Below are positions 1 through 18,948 of a stretch of DNA of 52,131 nucleotides, in pieces. The DNA is from Aquabacterium sp. (lineage in GTDB: Bacteria > Pseudomonadota > Gammaproteobacteria > Burkholderiales > Burkholderiaceae_C), in NCBI GenBank assembly GCA_023150345.1, contig JAKLLB010000019.1, forward strand, positions 1 to 52,131, in the 5' to 3' direction. The first letter of the stretch is position 1; the number at the start of each line of letters is the position of its first letter. Below the pieces are notes generated by a model, which did no database searches, was not told the origin of the DNA, and saw nothing but the letters and a program-made list of their open reading frames with translations. Position numbers and translations under genes: made by a program.

Positions 1-53
1 CCTGTCACCCCTGCCAGATCCATCCACCGAACGGCAGAGAAAGGAGGCCACCC

Positions 54-629
54 ATGCACCACCAACACCACAGCCACGTGCTGCAACTCGACATCCAGGG
101 CACGCCGCAGGCGTGGATCTCGCTGGAGCATGCGGCCGTTCACGTGGCCACGGGCTCGGTGGCGTGGGTCGACGGCGACGGCCCGCTGGCCACGCTGCGT
201 GGCGGCTTCAACGTCGAGCGCGGCCGGCAGTCCGTCATCGATGTGTTCCCGATCATCGCGCTGCGCGGTGCGTCCAGGGTCAACCTGTTCGATGTGGTGC
301 CGGCCTTCAGCAAGCTCAAGCTGTTCCGCCGCGACCGGATGACGTGCGCCTACTGCGGCCAGCGCTTTCACGAGCGCGATCTGCAGTGCGAGCACATCCT
401 GCCGGAATCGCGCGGCGGCCGCTGGACCTGGATGAACCTGGTCACCGCCTGCGGCCCGTGCAACGGCCGCAAGGCCGACCGCACGCCGGAGGAAGCGGGC
501 ATGCCGCTGGTGTACCTGCCGTACGTGCCGAGCCGCTTCGAGGCCTTTCTGCTCGACGGCCGGCACATCCGTGCCGACGTGCACGAATGGCTGGCCGCGC
601 GCCTGCCGAAGGGATCGCGCCTGAGCTGA
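54..629 (+). CDS. HNH endonuclease family protein
   Basis: A 191-residue protein with a C-terminal HNH nuclease fold. A first zinc-type pair, CAYC (about residues 99-102), is followed by the EHILPESRGG histidine motif (about 113-122), a W-x-N-L-V segment and a second pair CGPC (about 133-136), which is the usual ββα-metal layout of McrA-type HNH nucleases. The first 85 residues match no domain I know. A strong Shine-Dalgarno (AAAGGAGG, 40-47) supports the start at 54. It precedes the structured-RNA region and the slipin-rtcB pair by about half a kilobase. It may be an ordinary stand-alone HNH protein of this order, so no functional link to RtcB can be claimed from position alone. Substrate is unknown. 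Confidence 0.85.
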   Translation: MHHQHHSHVLQLDIQGTPQAWISLEHAAVHVATGSVAWVDGDGPLATLRGGFNVERGRQSVIDVFPIIALRGASRVNLFDVVPAFSKLKLFRRDRMTCAYCGQRFHERDLQCEHILPESRGGRWTWMNLVTACGPCNGRKADRTPEEAGMPLVYLPYVPSRFEAFLLDGRHIRADVHEWLAARLPKGSRLS

Positions 630-680
630 AAGGCTCGGGCGCTTCAGAGTCTGCTGTGAAAGGCGAACGCTCACAGGTCA

Positions 681-696
681 GGGGTTCGTGAACCCC
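681..696 (+). other. Perfect hairpin downstream of the HNH gene
   Basis: GGGGTT (681-686) pairs with AACCCC (691-696) around a CGTG loop. No T-run follows, so it is a weak terminator candidate at best. It could be the 5' end of the structured RNA region that follows. Confidence 0.4.
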
Positions 697-763
697 GCCG
701 GTGTGTGGCATCCGGATCCGTCCGTGGGTGCCGCACATGCCGCGCCGCCGGAAGCAGCGGAAT

Positions 764-818
764 GGGTCATCCAAGGTGGCAGCGCAGGCTGCCGGGTTCG
801 AGTCCCGGATGACCCCCA
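764..818 (+). ncRNA. Miniature tRNA-like element (acceptor plus T-arm)
   Basis: GGGTCAT (764-770) pairs perfectly over 7 bp with ATGACCC (809-815), and CCGGG-TTCGAGT-CCCGG (792-808) is a textbook 5-bp T-arm with a 7-nt T-loop. CCA follows at 816-818. Only 21 nt separate the acceptor strand from the T-arm. In that space two very small hairpins can form: CCA-AGG-TGG (771-779) and CAGC-GCAG-GCTG (780-791). There is no room for a normal D-arm and anticodon arm, so this cannot decode. It is either a tRNA mimic or a tRNA gene with an internal deletion. The intact pairing of both remaining stems favours a retained structure. Confidence 0.55.
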
Positions 819-819
819 C

Positions 820-890
820 TGTTGTGTAGCTCAGTCGGGTAGAGCAACTCCGCAAGGAGCTTGTCGAAGGTTCGAATCCTTCCCAACGAA
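820..890 (+). ncRNA. Second tRNA-like element with GCAA tetraloop in place of an anticodon loop
   Basis: This element begins within two bases of the previous one. It has a canonical D-arm (GCTC 829-832 with GAGC 842-845, preceded by the usual TA at positions 8-9) and a canonical T-arm (GAAGG-TTCGAAT-CCTTC, 866-882). The acceptor is weaker: bases 820-826 pair with 883-888 if T825 is bulged and one pair is G-U. No CCA is encoded. Where a 7-nt anticodon loop belongs there is CTCC-GCAA-GGAG (848-859), a 4-bp stem capped by a GNRA-type tetraloop. The 3' half resembles tRNA-Lys. It is therefore a tRNA-shaped RNA without an anticodon, not a functional tRNA gene. Confidence 0.55.
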
Positions 891-920
891 TGGCCTGATA
901 AGCCATCTCCAGCAACAAAC

Positions 921-932
921 GGTCGAAAGACC
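921..932 (+). other. GAAA-tetraloop hairpin
   Basis: GGTC (921-924) pairs with GACC (929-932) around GAAA. It lies between the tRNA-like elements and the long hairpin at 931-982, with which it shares two bases, so the two would compete or stack. Confidence 0.45.
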
Positions 933-982
933 ACCGCCGAACGTGCACCCAGGGCCCAGGCCCAAACGTGCATCAGCGGTGG
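931..982 (+). ncRNA. Elongated interrupted hairpin upstream of the slipin gene
   Basis: Three nested stems stack into one long hairpin: CCACCGC (931-937) with GCGGTGG (976-982), TGCAC (944-948) with GTGCA (968-972), and GGGC (952-955) with GCCC (960-963), the last closed by a CCAG loop. Short internal loops separate them (938-943 opposite 973-975, and 949-951 opposite 964-967). The 8-base word AACGTGCA occurs at 940-947 and 965-972. It may belong to the same transcript as the tRNA-like elements. From 983 to the slipin ribosome binding site I see no further clear element except the 10-bp palindrome GTCCGCGGAC near 1091-1100. Confidence 0.45.
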
Positions 983-1156
983 CCGCTTGTGCGCCGGGCA
1001 CGCGGGGCTTCGCATCCATGGCCAGCCGAGGGGGTTCTCAGGGAGGGAACCGCCGACGCGCACCGTGCGATCCGGACCCAGGCACTCGTTGTCCGCGGAC
1101 GTCGCTGTAACGGCACCCTTTTCATTCACACGCTTCAACCAAGAAGGAGAACTCCC

Positions 1157-2296
1157 ATGAAGATCAAGCGTGTCACCGTGAAGAAGAACGAGCGCGGCCT
1201 GCTGCTGCGCAATGGCGATTTCGAGCGCGTGCTGCAACCCGGCACGCATTGGCTGTTCGCCGGCCTGGATACCCTGCGCGTGGAGCTCTTCGCACTCGAA
1301 GCTCCGGCGTTCACGCACGGCCTGGCCGACTACCTGATGGCCAAGGAGCCCGAGTTGGTGGCGGCCGAGTTCGTGCGCGTCGAGCTCACCGAAAACCAGG
1401 TCGGCCTGCGCACCGAGAACGGCGCGTTGGTCGAGGTGCTCGCGCCTGCCACCCGGCGCCTGTACTGGAAGGGCCTGGTCGACGTGCAGGTCGAGGTGAT
1501 CGACATCGGCGCGTCGGCCGAGGTGCCGGCTGCGTTGGTGGCGCGGCTCGTCCAGACGCAGCTGCGCCAGCGTGCGGTGCAAGGCCTGGCCGGTGTGCTG
1601 CAGGTGCAGGTGCCCGAACACGGCGCCGGCATCCTGTGGATCGACGGCAAGGTCGAGCGGTTGCTCGCGGCCGGCTCGTACGCGTTCTGGAAGTTCAACC
1701 GCAATGTGTCGGTGGAGCTCGTGGACCTGCGGCTGCAGGCGCTGGAGGTGACGGGCCAGGAGATCCTGACCCGCGACAAGGTCGCCCTGCGGCTGAACCT
1801 CTCGGCCACGTGGCGCTTCACCGATGTGCTGAAGGCCTACAAGGACCTGGCCAAGCCCGCGGAACACCTGTACCGCGAGCTGCAGTTCGGCCTGCGCGCC
1901 GCGGTGGGCACCCGCTCGCTCGACGAACTGCTCGAGAACAAGACGGTGATCGACGAGGTCGTCACCGCTCAGGTCAAGTCGAAGCTCGCGGACTACGGTC
2001 TGCAGCTCGACGGCGTGGGCGTGAAGGACATCGTGCTGCCGGGCGAGATGAAGACCATCCTCGCCCAGGTGGTCGAGGCCGGGAAGTCGGCCGAGGCCAA
2101 CGTGATCCGTCGGCGTGAAGAGACGGCGGCGACGCGTTCGCTGCTGAACACGGCCAAGGTGATGGAGGACAACCCCGTCGCTCTGCGGCTGAAGGAGCTT
2201 GAGACGCTGGAACGCGTGGCCGAGCGCATCGACAAGATCTCCGTGTTCGGAGGTCTGGACCAGGTTCTCAACGGGCTGGTGAAGCTCCAGAAATAG
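1157..2296 (+). CDS. Slipin / SPFH (band 7) family protein
   Basis: A 379-residue protein of the stomatin/prohibitin/flotillin class. Family knowledge: SPFH proteins form oligomeric scaffolds at membranes, and slipins are often encoded beside rtcB. The N-terminal third starts KIKRVTVKKNERGLLLRNG and carries a G-T-H-W motif typical of bacterial slipins. A second repeat-like segment follows (about 140-200), then the SPFH core with EILTRDKVALRLN (about 199-211), and a charged helical C-terminus from about residue 280. The start at 1157 is set by the AAGAAGGAGA Shine-Dalgarno (1141-1150). I see no clear N-terminal membrane segment, unlike classical stomatins, so membrane contact would be peripheral or through a partner. 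It lies 100 bp upstream of rtcB on the same strand and probably shares its transcript. Confidence 0.85.
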   Translation: MKIKRVTVKKNERGLLLRNGDFERVLQPGTHWLFAGLDTLRVELFALEAPAFTHGLADYLMAKEPELVAAEFVRVELTENQVGLRTENGALVEVLAPATRRLYWKGLVDVQVEVIDIGASAEVPAALVARLVQTQLRQRAVQGLAGVLQVQVPEHGAGILWIDGKVERLLAAGSYAFWKFNRNVSVELVDLRLQALEVTGQEILTRDKVALRLNLSATWRFTDVLKAYKDLAKPAEHLYRELQFGLRAAVGTRSLDELLENKTVIDEVVTAQVKSKLADYGLQLDGVGVKDIVLPGEMKTILAQVVEAGKSAEANVIRRREETAATRSLLNTAKVMEDNPVALRLKELETLERVAERIDKISVFGGLDQVLNGLVKLQK

Positions 2297-2368
2297 GACC
2301 ACCCCGAAGCGGCTGCGCCGCTCCCCTCAAGGGGCAACACCAGCGGCCCGGCAGAGCCGGTTCCGCGG
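2297..2368 (+). repeat. Hairpin-rich intergenic repeat between slipin and rtcB
   Basis: Three short hairpins follow the slipin stop in a row: AGCGGC-TGC-GCCGCT, CCCCT-CA-AGGGG and CCGGC-AGA-GCCGG. This layout resembles an intergenic repeat that I recall as dispersed in Burkholderiales genomes. A partly similar set occurs at 4729-4785 (CCCC..GGGG followed by CGGGCCCGG). No T-run follows, so read-through into rtcB is expected. Confidence 0.45.
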
Positions 2369-2396
2369 TGTTCGCATGACAATGAAGGACTCTAAG

Positions 2397-3614
2397 ATGG
2401 AAACGAACTACATCCACGAAGACGTCGGCGGCGGCGTGCCGCTGAAGATGTGGACGCGCGGCGTGCCTGTCGAAGACGAGGCCAAGCGCCAGCTGCAGAA
2501 TGCCGCGCGCCTGCCCATCGTCTTCAAGCACATCGCGGCCATGCCCGACGTGCACTTCGGCATCGGCGCCACCGTGGGCTCGGTGATCCCGACCATCAAG
2601 GCCATCATCCCGGCCGCGGTGGGCGTGGACATCGGCTGCGGCATGATCGCCTGCAAGACCACGCTGACGGCGGAAGACCTGCCTGACAACCTGGGCCCGC
2701 TGCGCTCGGCCATCGAGCGCGCGGTGCCGCACGGCCGCCAGCCAGGTTCCCGAGACCCCGGTGCGTGGCAGAAGGCACCCGGCTCGGTGAACACCGCGTG
2801 GGCACAGCTGGAGCCGGAGTTCACCGAGCTGTGCCGCGACTACCCGAAGCTGGCGAAGACCAACCACATCCAGCACCTGGGCACTCTGGGCACGGGCAAC
2901 CACTTCATCGAGGTCTGCCTGGACGAAGCGGGCTTCGTGTGGTTCATGCTGCACTCGGGCTCGCGCGGCGTGGGAAACTTCATCGGCACGATGTTCATCG
3001 AGCTGGCGAAGCAGGACGCGGTGCGCCATCAGGCGAATCTGCCGGACCGTGACCTGGCCTACTTCGAGGAAGGCAGCCGCTACTTCGGCGACTACGTGCG
3101 CGCCGTGGGCTGGGCGCAGAAGTTCGCCGCCATCAACCGCGAGGTGATGATGAAGCGCGTGATCGAAGCCGCGAAGACGGTGATCCGCAAGAACTTCCAG
3201 AGCCACATCGAGGCGGTGAACTGCCACCACAACTATGTGAGCACGGAACACCACTTCGGCGAAGACGTTTACGTCACCCGCAAGGGCGCGGTGAGCGCGA
3301 AGGCCGGGCAGCTGGGCATCATCCCCGGCAGCATGGGCGCGCGCAGCTACATCGTGCGCGGCAAGGGCCATGCGGACAGCTTCGAGAGCTGCTCGCACGG
3401 CGCGGGCCGCGTGATGAGCCGCGGCGAAGCCAAGCGCCGCTTCACGCTGGCCGACCACCGCGCCGCGACCGAAGGCGTCGAGTGCCGCAAGGACAAGGAC
3501 GTGATCGACGAGACGCCCGCGGCCTACAAGGACATCGACGCCGTGATGGAAGCGCAGCGCGACCTGGTCGACGTGGTGCACACGCTGAAGCAGGTGGTGT
3601 GTGTGAAGGGGTGA
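2397..3614 (+). CDS. rtcB: RNA-splicing ligase RtcB
   Basis: A 405-residue GTP- and Mn-dependent RNA ligase. Family knowledge: RtcB joins 2',3'-cyclic phosphate or 3'-phosphate ends to 5'-OH ends, repairing cleaved RNAs such as tRNA halves. Visible motifs in order: MPDVHFGIGATVGS, VDIGCGM with the metal-binding Cys, GTLGTGNHFIEV, HSGSRGVG, NCHHNY, PGSMGARSYIVRGKG, and SHGAGRVMSR, which carries the histidine that becomes guanylylated. All active-site blocks appear intact. The start at 2397 is preferred because AAGGA (2385-2389) sits 7 bases upstream. An in-frame ATG at 2376 would add seven residues. It follows the slipin gene, and no rtcA or archease gene lies in the window. A terminator follows. 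Confidence 0.95.
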   Translation: METNYIHEDVGGGVPLKMWTRGVPVEDEAKRQLQNAARLPIVFKHIAAMPDVHFGIGATVGSVIPTIKAIIPAAVGVDIGCGMIACKTTLTAEDLPDNLGPLRSAIERAVPHGRQPGSRDPGAWQKAPGSVNTAWAQLEPEFTELCRDYPKLAKTNHIQHLGTLGTGNHFIEVCLDEAGFVWFMLHSGSRGVGNFIGTMFIELAKQDAVRHQANLPDRDLAYFEEGSRYFGDYVRAVGWAQKFAAINREVMMKRVIEAAKTVIRKNFQSHIEAVNCHHNYVSTEHHFGEDVYVTRKGAVSAKAGQLGIIPGSMGARSYIVRGKGHADSFESCSHGAGRVMSRGEAKRRFTLADHRAATEGVECRKDKDVIDETPAAYKDIDAVMEAQRDLVDVVHTLKQVVCVKG

Positions 3615-3634
3615 GCTTCAGCTCGCGCCAGTGC

Positions 3635-3664
3635 GGGGGCGTTCGATGTCAGTCGAGCGCCCCC
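3635..3664 (+). terminator. Terminator after rtcB
   Basis: GGGGGCGTTCGA pairs with TCGAGCGCCCCC around a short loop. A pyrimidine-rich stretch (GTCTTCCTGTTCTT) follows. It ends the slipin-rtcB transcript about 20 bases after the stop. Confidence 0.7.
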
Positions 3665-3891
3665 GTCTTCCTGTTCTTGGGTCCATGATCTCTGGTGCCG
3701 CTGGATGCGCAACCAGCTGTGACTGACTGGCTAGAAACTCGGCAACCCGGGAATCGAACCATTTGCGAATTTCGCCAGTTTCTGGACAGGAGCAAACCGC
3801 GGAGTACATGTTCGCCAGGACAAGCGAGATCGAGCACTGGCGCGGCCTGCCGCGCATCTTTGGAAGTTGCCCGAGGCCACCAAGATAAAAG

Positions 3892-3947
3892 CTAAGTGCG
3901 ACAAGGACTTAGTCAAGCATTCAGCCCGCCATTGAGCGGGCTTTTTT
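3892..3947 (+). terminator. Hairpin and strong intrinsic terminator
   Basis: CTAAGT (3892-3897) can pair with ACTTAG (3907-3912). Just after it, AGCCCGC (3923-3929) pairs with GCGGGCT (3936-3942), followed by six Ts. No gene I can recognise ends here. The stretch 3665-3890 contains only short open frames without recognisable motifs. It could be the end of a decayed gene or of an unrecognised RNA. Confidence 0.75.
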
Positions 3948-4037
3948 GCGCCCGCCGCCGATGCAGTCCGTGTGTTGCAACGTTTCGCCCAGCGACTGCA
4001 CTCCGCCTTGGAGTCCAGCCCGCCTGCTCGCCGCAGA

Positions 4038-4220
4038 CTCACAGCAGTGGAGCGCTTCTTCCGTGACATCACGACCGAACGCCTGCGCCGGGGCGTGTTC
4101 ACCAGCGTGCCCGAGCTGGAAGCTGCGATCAACGACCACGTCGCTCACCCCGACAACGACCCCAAGCCGTTCGTCTGGACCAAGACCGCTCGCGACATTG
4201 GGCAGAAGGTCATTCGAGCC
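4038..4220 (+). pseudogene. IS630-type transposase C-terminal remnant
   Basis: About 60 residues resemble the end of IS630-family transposases: AVERFFRDITTERLRRGVF, then a helix PELEAAINDHVAHP and the conserved D-P-K-P-F-x-W-T motif followed by A-x-D-I. The upstream catalytic DDE part is missing and translation runs into unrelated sequence after about 4220. The motif is also altered (PDNDPKPF where HN is usual). No terminal inverted repeats or target duplication could be matched, so this is an old, inactive fragment. Confidence 0.7.
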
Positions 4221-4302
4221 GACGCGCGTTCAAGTTCTGGGCAGAACGAAACGCTGCACCAGCGGCCTGCGGGCAATCACACCGCGTTACGATACGCGCA
4301 AC

Positions 4303-4617
4303 ATGTTTGTCGACGTACTCGCTGCCCTGGGCCTGCTGGCCTGCCTGTTGTTGCTGGCCCGCATGGCCCTGTCGCAGCGGCGGCGGCAGCGGTTGGATGC
4401 CGCGATGCGTGAGGCGGCTGCGGGGCTGCGCCGCCTGCCCTGGCGGCTGCGCCATCGGCGCCATGTCCAGCAAGACGCGGCCGAGGCCGCGCAGGAAGCC
4501 ATCCGGCGCGCGCGCGGCCCGAGCCGCACCCGGGCGCGGACACAGTGGGATGGCAACGTGGCCCGACCCGATGCCTTCGACCGGCCGCCGCCGCGTTCGC
4601 CCAAGGATTTGCACTGA
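4303..4617 (+). CDS. Small membrane protein of unknown function
   Basis: A 104-residue protein with one N-terminal hydrophobic segment (about residues 3-23) followed by a very basic stretch rich in Arg and a charged tail. No catalytic motif is visible. The frame extends upstream through the transposase remnant area, but ATG 4303 directly precedes the hydrophobic segment and is the plausible start. No clear Shine-Dalgarno is seen. Bases 4291-4296 (TACGAT) resemble a -10 element, which would make this a leaderless or weakly translated gene. The call of a real gene rests on the membrane segment and position alone. Confidence 0.5.
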   Translation: MFVDVLAALGLLACLLLLARMALSQRRRQRLDAAMREAAAGLRRLPWRLRHRRHVQQDAAEAAQEAIRRARGPSRTRARTQWDGNVARPDAFDRPPPRSPKDLH

Positions 4618-18837: not shown

Positions 18838-18864
18838 AAAAAAAACCCCGGCCGAAGGCCGGGG
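18838..18864 (-). terminator. Strong intrinsic terminator of the small RNA
   Basis: CCCCGGCC-GAA-GGCCGGGG with a run of eight A on the plus strand, giving U8 after the hairpin on the minus strand. It acts on transcripts arriving from the right, where the only candidate is the small RNA. Confidence 0.85.
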
Positions 18865-18948
18865 TCGCAAGCCTTAACGCTGTCATCACGGTAAGGCACC
18901 TGCTCAGGGAGGAAAAGCAGGGAACAACAGCCTCGCGGCTATCATTCG
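18838..18948 (-). ncRNA. Candidate small RNA with CCUCCC loop, divergent to hemB
   Basis: On the minus strand a promoter-like TAATAT (18960-18955) precedes about 110 nt of foldable sequence. In order: a 4-bp hairpin with GCGA loop (18940-18929), a perfect 6-bp hairpin CCTGCT/AGCAGG (18921-18899) whose 11-nt loop reads UUUCCUCCCUG, a 6-bp hairpin GCCTTA/TAAGGC (18897-18871), and a terminator of 8 bp (18864-18846) followed by eight Ts. No open frame of note lies inside. The transcript would end before the hemJ start at 18808. The exposed CCUCCC loop could bind Shine-Dalgarno sequences of target mRNAs. I know no Rfam family it fits. Confidence 0.6.

What the first reader, a model, noticed from the sequence alone, without database searches (positions are those of the whole stretch)
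764..890. Two tandem tRNA mimics without anticodons directly upstream of a slipin-RtcB operon
Seen: a 53-nt element with perfect acceptor and T-arm but only 21 nt between them, then two bases later a 70-nt element with intact D- and T-arms whose anticodon loop is replaced by a GCAA tetraloop. Neither can decode. Known: bacterial Y RNAs such as YrlA carry tRNA-like modules and can be encoded with rtcB operons (rsr-yrlBA-rtcBA in Salmonella), and RtcB repairs cleaved tRNAs. Inference: this may be a structured RNA belonging to an RNA-repair locus, serving as substrate decoy, sensor or scaffold. No Ro/TROVE gene lies in the window, and the pairing could also be explained by decayed tRNA genes.
Basis: partly seen in the sequence, partly recalled or inferred. 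Interest (0 to 1): 0.82.

Follow-up and report, generated by a model that had tools for sequence, protein, structure and literature searches.

The report
Tandem tRNA-mimic RNA in repair operons
In front of a bacterial RNA-repair gene set sits an apparently uncatalogued folded RNA of about 480 letters with two imitation transfer RNAs that cannot decode; it travels with the same membrane-protein gene from species to species and looks like an overlooked part of the response to damaged RNA.

Summary
The two anticodon-less tRNA-like elements (764-818 with an encoded CCA; 820-889) are domains of one conserved structured RNA of about 480 nt (about 640-1117): a 5' domain, the two tRNA-like domains, GNRA hairpins and a 3' domain ending about 40 nt before the slipin start codon. 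It was found in 77 of 80 slipin loci; the other 3 have at most 389 nt upstream. In all three parts no shuffle of 500 reaches the covariation score. In a 250-genome family sample, 24 of 24 genomes with this slipin carry it, 22 by blind scan and 2 by a targeted look. No Rfam 15 family reaches its cut-off there except 'tRNA' for one element. Two settings exist: rtcR/sigma54 promoter-RNA-slipin-rtcB, and tRNA array-HNH-RNA-slipin-rtcB (the window's kind). It is not a Y RNA: one locus carries it beside a separate YrlA and an Rsr-like gene. Decayed tRNAs are rejected. Most likely it is a stress-induced tRNA-mimic leader or noncoding RNA of RNA-repair operons. Function is inferred and untested, and some lineages have lost the tRNA-like part.

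The parts
54..629 (+). HNH endonuclease gene, upstream neighbour in array-type loci
   Evidence: Pfam HNH_5 E 1.5e-16; a homologue ends 477-628 nt before slipin, directly upstream of the RNA, in 31 of 80 loci. The contig starts at window base 1, so a tRNA array further upstream cannot be seen here.
640..1117 (+). the whole conserved structured RNA (5' limit uncertain by some tens of nt; 3' limit = conserved CTGTAACGGCACC)
   Evidence: Alignments of 42, 42 and 30 loci; covariation.
653..763 (+). 5' domain: GCTCACAGG at 669-677, hairpin about 676-698, long hairpin 700-741 (GGTG...CATGCC)
   Evidence: CM R1 match, 102.1 bits, E 2.5e-23 (the window is one of the 42 training sequences); 24 pairs, 19 with both-sided changes.
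764..818 (+). tRNA-like domain 1 (TLS1): acceptor 764-770/809-815, hairpin in place of D- and anticodon arms, T-arm 792-808, CCA 816-818
   Evidence: Fold z -3.9; acceptor permutation test; CCA just behind the acceptor in 58 of 72 loci.
820..889 (+). tRNA-like domain 2 (TLS2): short acceptor, D-arm 829-845, stem with GCAA tetraloop 848-859, T-arm 866-882
   Evidence: Rfam tRNA 33.4 bits; 98.7% of cells paired over T-arm 1, D-arm 2, anticodon-position stem and T-arm 2.
890..932 (+). linker hairpin (TGGC...GCCA, about 892-906) and conserved GNRA hairpin GGTC-GAAA-GACC 921-932
   Evidence: Helix 1 of A3, 100% of cells paired but almost invariant; the linker hairpin was seen by eye and in the fold only.
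934..1117 (+). 3' domain closed by GCCG 936-939 / CGGC 1111-1114, with helix 943-948/968-973 and a long helix from CAG 974-976 / CTG 1105-1107
   Evidence: A3 (with the GNRA hairpin): 47 pairs, 31 with both-sided changes; score 0.421 against 0.183 in shuffles. The closing GCCG/CGGC helix is nearly invariant and gives no covariation evidence of its own.
1157..2296 (+). slipin (Band_7/SPFH) gene, the closest partner of the RNA
   Evidence: Pfam Band_7 E 2.6e-30; 24 of 24 slipin-bearing genomes (E <= 1e-60) of the family sample have the RNA.
2376..3614 (+). rtcB, RNA ligase
   Evidence: PF01139 428 bits; no terminator-like site between the RNA and the end of rtcB on this strand, one at 3633-3666.

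Best explanation
SHOWN: about 640-1117 holds one conserved, covarying structured RNA of roughly 480 nt with two tRNA-like domains that cannot decode. It lies directly upstream of slipin and, in most loci, rtcB. In about half of the relatives it stands right behind a sigma54-like site with a divergent rtcR; in most of the others it follows an HNH gene, often with a tRNA array further upstream. INFERRED: the RNA is made when the repair operon is switched on by RNA damage. It is released from, or acts at, the 5' end of the operon transcript; TLS1, with its acceptor, T-arm and CCA, could be an RNase P substrate. It then works as a tRNA mimic: the tRNA-shaped domains recruit or occupy general tRNA-binding proteins (tRNA-cleaving nucleases, repair enzymes, modifying or CCA enzymes), while the missing, shortened or tetraloop-capped anticodon arm means that they cannot be used in translation and are poor targets for anticodon nucleases. 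The 5' and 3' domains, which persist where the tRNA-like domains are lost, are the core scaffold and probably bind an operon product, the slipin being the best candidate.
For: Presence in 77 of 80 slipin loci. Genome-wide CM search: slipin directly downstream, on the same strand, of 37 of 38 distinct matches with E <= 1e-4. 24 of 24 slipin genomes. Covariation far above shuffled and slid controls in all three parts. Acceptor pairing of TLS1. TLS2 loop GAAA in 12 and GCAA in 11 of 72 loci, otherwise mostly 3-7 nt with varied anticodons; ARAGORN reads the orthologous place as Ile, Met, Cys, Leu, Thr, Val, Phe, Ser, Gln, Lys or Arg in different loci, so decoding is not what is kept. rtcR in 39 of 80 loci by tblastn (family confirmed for 4 of 4 scanned); a sigma54-like site (at least 8 of 10 letters, 150-200 nt before T-arm 1) in 35 of 35 rtcR loci and 0 of 37 others examined. 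RlaP in 19 and rtcA in 28 of 80 within the flanks. Hughes et al. 2020 (PMC7790460, passages) propose that YrlA's tRNA-like domain may competitively inhibit an anticodon nuclease: the same idea for a different RNA.
Against: No expression, processing or binding data exist here. The tRNA-like domains are not indispensable: TLS1 is deleted in L089 and not detected in L015; the TLS region has no recognisable T-arm in 4 of the 6 Pseudomonas matches (L128, L130, L131, L133) and is degenerate in L122; two divergent loci (L136, L137) keep a single recognisable T-arm. No terminator-like site separates the RNA from slipin-rtcB, so a purely cis-acting leader is just as compatible. rtcB was not seen in the flanks of 9 of 80 loci, some of them on short contigs, so the tie to RtcB is looser than that to slipin. 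In array-type loci, the window's included, no RtcR or sigma54-like site was found near the RNA, so damage induction there is only assumed. I know of no RNA partner of a slipin (recall).
Confidence: 0.4

Rival explanations
1. Cis-acting leader: the RNA is a 5' untranslated control element of the slipin-rtcB mRNA. Its tRNA-like domains are bound by a repair or tRNA-binding protein, giving feedback on translation or stability, as the tRNA-like operator of E. coli thrS does for ThrRS (thrS recalled).
For: Immediately upstream of slipin and in its orientation in 37 of 38 genome-wide matches; no terminator-like or sigma70-like site between RNA and slipin in the window; the RNA's 3' motif lies a median of 41 nt before the slipin match (19-156 nt in 71 loci).
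Against: The slipin ribosome-binding region lies outside the conserved fold in a variable spacer, so no direct sequestration or attenuator is visible; about 480 nt is large for a leader.
Confidence: 0.3
2. Processing signal: TLS1 (mascRNA-like, with CCA) and TLS2 direct RNase P and other tRNA-processing enzymes to cut the tRNA array/HNH transcript from the slipin-rtcB mRNA.
For: TLS1 keeps just the acceptor, T-arm and CCA that RNase P needs (recall); CCA in 58 of 72 loci; the best sub-threshold Rfam match of TLS1 is mascRNA at 23.9 bits; 22 of 32 HNH loci have two or more tRNA genes upstream in the stretch held.
Against: The 39 rtcR loci show no such array (0 of 39 with two or more tRNA genes upstream) yet keep the RNA; conserved covarying 5' and 3' domains are not needed for a cut; CCA is missing in 14 of 72 and the TLS are lost in some loci.
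Confidence: 0.15
3. Decayed tRNA genes: two broken members of an upstream tRNA array.
For: Array-type loci have tRNA genes 1-3 kb upstream; the domains clearly descend from tRNAs, and distant loci L125 and L127 hold more complete tRNA-like forms.
Against: Covariation above controls in all three parts; conserved position before slipin across Burkholderiales and Pseudomonas; present in rtcR loci without arrays.
Confidence: 0.02
4. A bacterial Y RNA (YrlA-like).
For: Sub-threshold YrlA match spanning T-arm 1 to D-arm 2; both are tRNA mimics in rtc operons.
Against: Far below the cut-off; no TROVE match in the genome; acceptor 1 pairs with its own 5' strand rather than in the permuted YrlA manner; L020 holds YrlA and an Rsr-like gene as separate parts.
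Confidence: 0.03

Closest known systems
YrlA (RF02553), bacterial Y RNA of rsr-yrlBA-rtcBA operons
   Same: A noncoding tRNA mimic in an RtcR/RtcB repair operon.
   Different: One permuted tRNA-like module bound by Rsr (recalled from Chen et al. 2014, not held); here two tandem tRNA-like domains in order inside an RNA of about 480 nt, next to slipin, with no TROVE match in the window's genome. Both RNAs occur in one operon in L020.
mascRNA-menRNA (RF01684)
   Same: TLS1 is likewise an acceptor plus T-arm with a reduced D/anticodon part.
   Different: 23.9 bits against a cut-off of 42.5; mascRNA is known to me only from vertebrates (recall); no homology claimed.
RtcR-regulated rtcBA operon (E. 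coli, Salmonella; rtc locus of P. aeruginosa with SPFH gene PA14_60630)
   Same: Divergent rtcR, sigma54 promoter, rtcB, rtcA; an SPFH gene in the P. aeruginosa rtc locus is noted in PMC13086221 (one passage).
   Different: No structured leader RNA is mentioned in the passages that I saw; here the RNA is an extra, conserved first element. P. aeruginosa itself was not checked by name.
Anabaena trn array and TrcR regulon (PMC10272220, passages)
   Same: A 26-tRNA array, rtcB, a slipin and HNH genes rise together when TrcR is deleted: the same parts list as the array-type locus.
   Different: There they lie at separate loci; 'tRNA-like' occurs 0 times in the paper's main text. Anabaena was not searched for the RNA.
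Large structured bacterial RNAs (OLE, GOLLD, ROOL, raiA; recalled)
   Same: Size, covariation, unknown function.
   Different: No Rfam match to any of them at gathering cut-offs in the window or 8 loci; tied to one operon type.

Membership tests
YrlA / bacterial Y RNA | Rfam RF02553 score at or above gathering (69 bits) | tested here: not met
   23.5 bits, model positions 29-81 of 114
YrlA / bacterial Y RNA | Ro60/Rsr (TROVE) partner encoded | tested here: not met
   0 matches to PF05731 in own genome, a 94% complete MAG; an Rsr-like gene was found only in L020 among the 80 loci, within the flanks held (tblastn), where a separate YrlA exists
YrlA / bacterial Y RNA | Ro60-binding stem formed by the RNA ends | not tested
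   Defining paper not held; recalled feature
tRNA | 7-nt anticodon loop with conserved identity at an orthologous place | tested here: not met
   GAAA or GCAA tetraloop in 23 of 72; otherwise varied loops, and 8 of 72 without a perfect hairpin in the script's search; many different ARAGORN identities (56 of 80 loci)
tRNA | Rfam RF00005 score above gathering | tested here: met
   TLS2 of the window, 33.4 bits; of the 8 loci, TLS2 in 7 and TLS1 in L078. Shows tRNA ancestry, not function
mascRNA-menRNA | Rfam RF01684 above gathering (42.5 bits) | tested here: not met
   23.9 bits
RtcR-regulated RNA-repair operon (rtcR-type relatives) | divergent RtcR gene | tested here: met
   4 of 4 proteins scanned match PF06956; L033 passes NF038308 (820.9 bits, cut-off 650); tblastn in 39 of 80 loci
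RtcR-regulated RNA-repair operon (the window itself) | RtcR in the genome | tested here: not met
   0 matches to PF06956 in own genome, a 94% complete MAG
new conserved structured RNA (this report) | covariation above shuffled and slid controls | tested here: met
   0 of 500 shuffles reach the covariation score in A1, A2 and A3; in A2 one of five measures is reached by 14 of 500
new conserved structured RNA (this report) | expressed as RNA | not testable with these tools
   no transcript data held

The most novel reading that the evidence does not exclude
A new class of large structured RNA that is an obligate partner of an SPFH/slipin membrane protein in damage-induced RNA repair. A tRNA-shaped RNA hub that cannot be cut in an anticodon loop would gather damaged tRNAs, repair enzymes or tRNA-cutting toxins at the membrane, so that the operon supplies both the enzymes and an RNA platform. 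This would be, as far as I know, the first RNA partner of this protein family.
Probability: 0.25. Interest if true: 0.95.

Novelty: new variant of a known kind. Interest (0 to 1): 0.82.

Why it matters
RNA-repair operons have been studied as protein systems plus, in some species, a Y RNA; what slipin and the stretch before it do is open. A large covarying RNA with two non-decoding tRNA mimics, found in 24 of 24 slipin-bearing genomes of a family sample, says that the system has an RNA component that seems to have been overlooked. It gives a concrete handle: delete the RNA alone and ask whether repair, induction or survival after tRNA cleavage changes. It also ties tRNA arrays and RNA repair into one locus, matching the parts that one repressor controls in Anabaena.

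Tried and rejected
Y RNA membership, mascRNA membership and decayed tRNAs were tested and rejected (see rivals). A YrlA-like permuted fold (T-arm 1, acceptor-like stem, D-arm 2) was considered because of the sub-threshold Rfam match; acceptor 1 pairs with its own 5' strand instead. A first count-based test of that acceptor (pairs of 7, G-U allowed) was weak because controls scored high too (mean 6.2 against 5.3); the energy-based permutation replaced it. In that test the own partner ranked among the best 3 of 41 in only 22 loci for TLS1 and 10 for TLS2. RNAalifold on MAFFT alignment A2 did not show the acceptors because their 5' strands are misaligned there. The class-wide scan (369 genomes) found only the window's own genome, so the RNA is rare in the class at large; that tool scores few candidates and can miss divergent copies, as it did for G440 and G476 (26.7 and 24.4 bits when 13 kb were searched directly). 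Five weak family matches (E 7e-4 to 0.009) have no slipin, rtcB or rtcR beside them and are taken as chance. Other sub-threshold Rfam matches in the region (tRNA-Sec 682-816, 20.5 bits against 47; ftsZ-DE on the minus strand, 18.8 against 72.2) are taken as chance. No match in plasmid or phage records by blastn; no slipin relative confirmed in viral contigs. A search of the own genome for the tRNA array of a close relative (G450) gave only two matches of 83 and 62 nt, so an array upstream of the window is unassembled or absent. Literature searches showed no description of this RNA; their listings were partly capped (for instance 12 of 977), only open-licence papers are held, and the two papers that I most wanted (Chen 2014, Burroughs and Aravind 2016) are not held. 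HNH matches to PtuB/Cas9/IscB models are to the HNH domain only and were not read as a defence system.

Full report
Observation. TLS1 (764-818) has a 7-bp acceptor, a T-arm, a short hairpin in place of D- and anticodon arms, and CCA at 816-818. TLS2 (820-889) has D- and T-arms, a GCAA-capped stem in the anticodon position and an acceptor of about 5 bp. TLS1 folds far better than shuffles (z -3.9); TLS2 alone does not (z -0.55). Rfam scores TLS2 as tRNA (33.4 bits); sub-threshold matches are mascRNA for TLS1 (23.9 bits) and YrlA across T-arm 1 to D-arm 2 (23.5 bits against 69). ARAGORN finds no tRNA in the window.

Relatives. The slipin protein found 80 genome loci (287 candidates, best 80 kept). 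A pair of T-arms 64-83 nt apart lies upstream of slipin in 71 of 80. A covariance model of the 5' domain (R1) was then run on 17 sources, among them the other nine loci, and finds the RNA in 6 of those nine. The remaining three (L004, L072, L073) have at most 389 nt upstream. So 77 of 80 carry it by one test or the other, and 3 cannot be judged.

It is one larger RNA. Conservation does not stop at the two elements. A 5' domain (GCTCACAGG, a hairpin, then a long GGTG...CATGCC hairpin), TLS1, TLS2, GNRA hairpins and a 3' domain closed by GCCG/CGGC and ending CTGTAACGGCACC make about 480 nt in the window. The 3' motif lies 39 nt before the slipin start there, and 19-156 nt (median 41) before the slipin match in the 71 sequences where the script found it. 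On 42 loci, non-redundant at 85%, the 5' domain has 24 pairs, 19 with both-sided changes (covariation score 0.459; shuffles 0.198; slid controls at most 0.132). T-arm 1, D-arm 2, the anticodon-position stem and T-arm 2 together score 0.449 against 0.145; one of five measures there, pairs changed on both sides, is reached by 14 of 500 shuffles. The 3' domain, on the 30 loci given, has 47 pairs, 31 with both-sided changes, 0.421 against 0.183. These structures were derived from the same alignments, which favours them, but the controls are far below. The D-stem of TLS2 and the closing GCCG/CGGC helix are nearly invariant and so say nothing by themselves. Acceptors were tested apart: own strands pair at -8.57 kcal/mol (TLS1) and -4.17 (TLS2) on average, against -5.15 and -2.62 for strands swapped among 41 loci, 0 of 2000 permutations as low for either.

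The mimics are not tRNAs. The TLS2 loop is GAAA in 12 and GCAA in 11 of 72 sequences (71 loci and the window); others have mostly 3-7 nt loops with unrelated anticodons, and 8 of 72 gave no perfect hairpin in the script's search. ARAGORN, run on 56 of the 80 loci, gives the TLS2 place many different identities. CCA follows TLS1 in 58 of 72. In 41 loci it starts one nucleotide behind the acceptor in 9 of 15 six-pair and 8 of 14 seven-pair acceptors (10 of 14 counting two that carry CCA at two places); the window, where CCA follows a seventh pair directly, is an exception. Distant loci (L125, L127, and Pseudomonas L129, L132) have a D-arm in TLS1 too, so the ancestral state was probably two fuller tRNA-like domains. 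TLS1 is lost in L089 and not detected in L015; four of six Pseudomonas matches (L128, L130, L131, L133) show no T-arm between the outer domains, and L122 is degenerate (read by eye). This limits any claim that the mimics are the essential part.

Two genomic settings. rtcR is found by tblastn in 39 of 80 loci, upstream and divergent (4 of 4 proteins scanned match PF06956; NCBIfam RtcR equivalog for L033). A sigma54-like site (at least 8 of 10 consensus letters, 150-200 nt before T-arm 1) is in 35 of 35 rtcR loci examined and in 0 of 37 others. RlaP is seen in 19 and rtcA in 28 of 80 within the flanks. In 31 loci, as in the window, an HNH gene lies directly upstream, ending 477-628 nt before slipin. 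22 of 32 HNH-bearing loci have two or more tRNA genes upstream in the stretch held, against 0 of 39 rtcR loci; L020 has rtcR next to the RNA and an HNH gene further away. Ten loci have neither, of which L012, L035 and L055 have tRNA genes upstream and three have too little sequence. Several arrays are preceded by an rrn-type boxA-like sequence (boxA identity recalled). The window's own genome shows neither RtcR nor TROVE. rtcB is seen within the flanks of 71 of 80 loci; in L058 and L059 it is a 55%-identical copy on the upstream side.

Genome-wide test. R1 was searched over whole genomes without gene context. Family sample: 28 of 250 match at E <= 0.01, 23 strongly (E < 1e-9) and 5 weakly. RtcB is in 71 of the same 250 and in all 23 strong-match genomes. 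By the coordinates a full RtcB lies 1.7-7.7 kb downstream on the same strand in 21 of 23, only a fragment in G381, and none on that contig in G573. This slipin (E <= 1e-60) is in 24 of 250 genomes: 22 are strong-match genomes, and the other two (G440, G476) have a divergent copy at 24.4 and 26.7 bits directly upstream of slipin, found by searching only those 13 kb. Order sample: 12 of 250, 9 of them new. Pseudomonas sample: 6 of 119, one of them the genome of L078. Class sample: 1 of 369, the window's own. Of 38 distinct matches with E <= 1e-4, 37 have slipin directly downstream on the same strand (and the window). The exception (G573, L094/L112) is a decayed locus with a broken HNH gene and a truncated RNA. 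None of the five weak matches has slipin, rtcB or rtcR. The samples may share genomes with the 80 loci, so these counts are not wholly independent of the model's training set.

Not a Y RNA. In L020 the order is rtcR, RNA, slipin, an Rsr-like gene, YrlA (81 bits), rtcB. The Rsr-like protein matches Pfam Ro60 vWA and, at 24.0 bits against 23, TROVE, but scores 79 bits against a cut-off of 900 for NCBIfam Rsr. The two RNAs are separate parts of one operon. At gathering cut-offs Rfam 15 names nothing but tRNA for the RNA in the window and in 8 loci; the lax scan of window 1-2400 lists only sub-threshold matches besides.

How it may work. What is shown is a conserved fold, its neighbours and its regulatory setting. 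Function is inference. The most likely reading (0.4) is a damage-induced tRNA mimic that engages tRNA-binding nucleases or repair factors without being translatable, on a scaffold that works with slipin or another operon product. Cis-control of slipin-rtcB (0.3) and a processing signal (0.15) are live rivals. RtcR is reported to respond to damaged tRNAs (PMC7790460, passages), and the same paper suggests competitive inhibition of an anticodon nuclease for YrlA. In Anabaena, deletion of TrcR raises a 26-tRNA array, rtcB, a slipin and HNH genes together (PMC10272220, passages), which links the parts of the array-type locus to translational stress.

Novelty. No description was found in ten open-literature searches (some listings capped); I saw passages of four papers, and key subscription papers were not held. 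I rate it a new variant of a known kind (a tRNA-mimic noncoding RNA of rtc operons), although as an RNA family it has no relative that I could find.

Noticed in passing
L005, L006, L007, L009, L011, L026, L027, L061, L109, L110, L111 (close); L003, L015, L051, L089, L117 (further off or first tRNA not called): An rrn boxA-like sequence GCTCTTTAACA stands about 50-70 nt before the first called tRNA of the array in the first group, and some hundreds of nt before it in the second where a tRNA was called, suggesting ribosomal-RNA-type antitermination of these transcripts (boxA identity recalled).
   Followed up: partly
L020 4664-6756: One operon holds the new RNA, slipin, an Rsr/Ro60-like gene, a true YrlA and rtcB together.
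   Followed up: partly
L058 1179-2360 and L059 5-1087: A different RtcB (about 55% identical) lies on the upstream side of HNH and the RNA in these two loci.
   Followed up: no
L112 6900-7300: Decayed copy of the locus: broken HNH gene, RNA cut off at TLS1, no slipin or rtcB found beside it.
   Followed up: yes
window 18838-18923 (-): Rfam anti-hemB RNA (RF02837), 65.7 bits, described there as Burkholderia RNA 7.
   Followed up: no
L033 686-1126 (-): The RNase P RNA gene lies right behind rtcR in this Acidovorax locus; whether that adjacency is general was not checked.
   Followed up: no
L002 4700-5596: A gene with a match to SDH/ClpP-like serine proteinases stands between slipin and rtcB; in L033 and L036 the open frame behind slipin has no such match.
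   Followed up: no
window 3946-4412 (+): A short open frame downstream of rtcB resembles, from recall only, the end of an IS630-type transposase.
   Followed up: no
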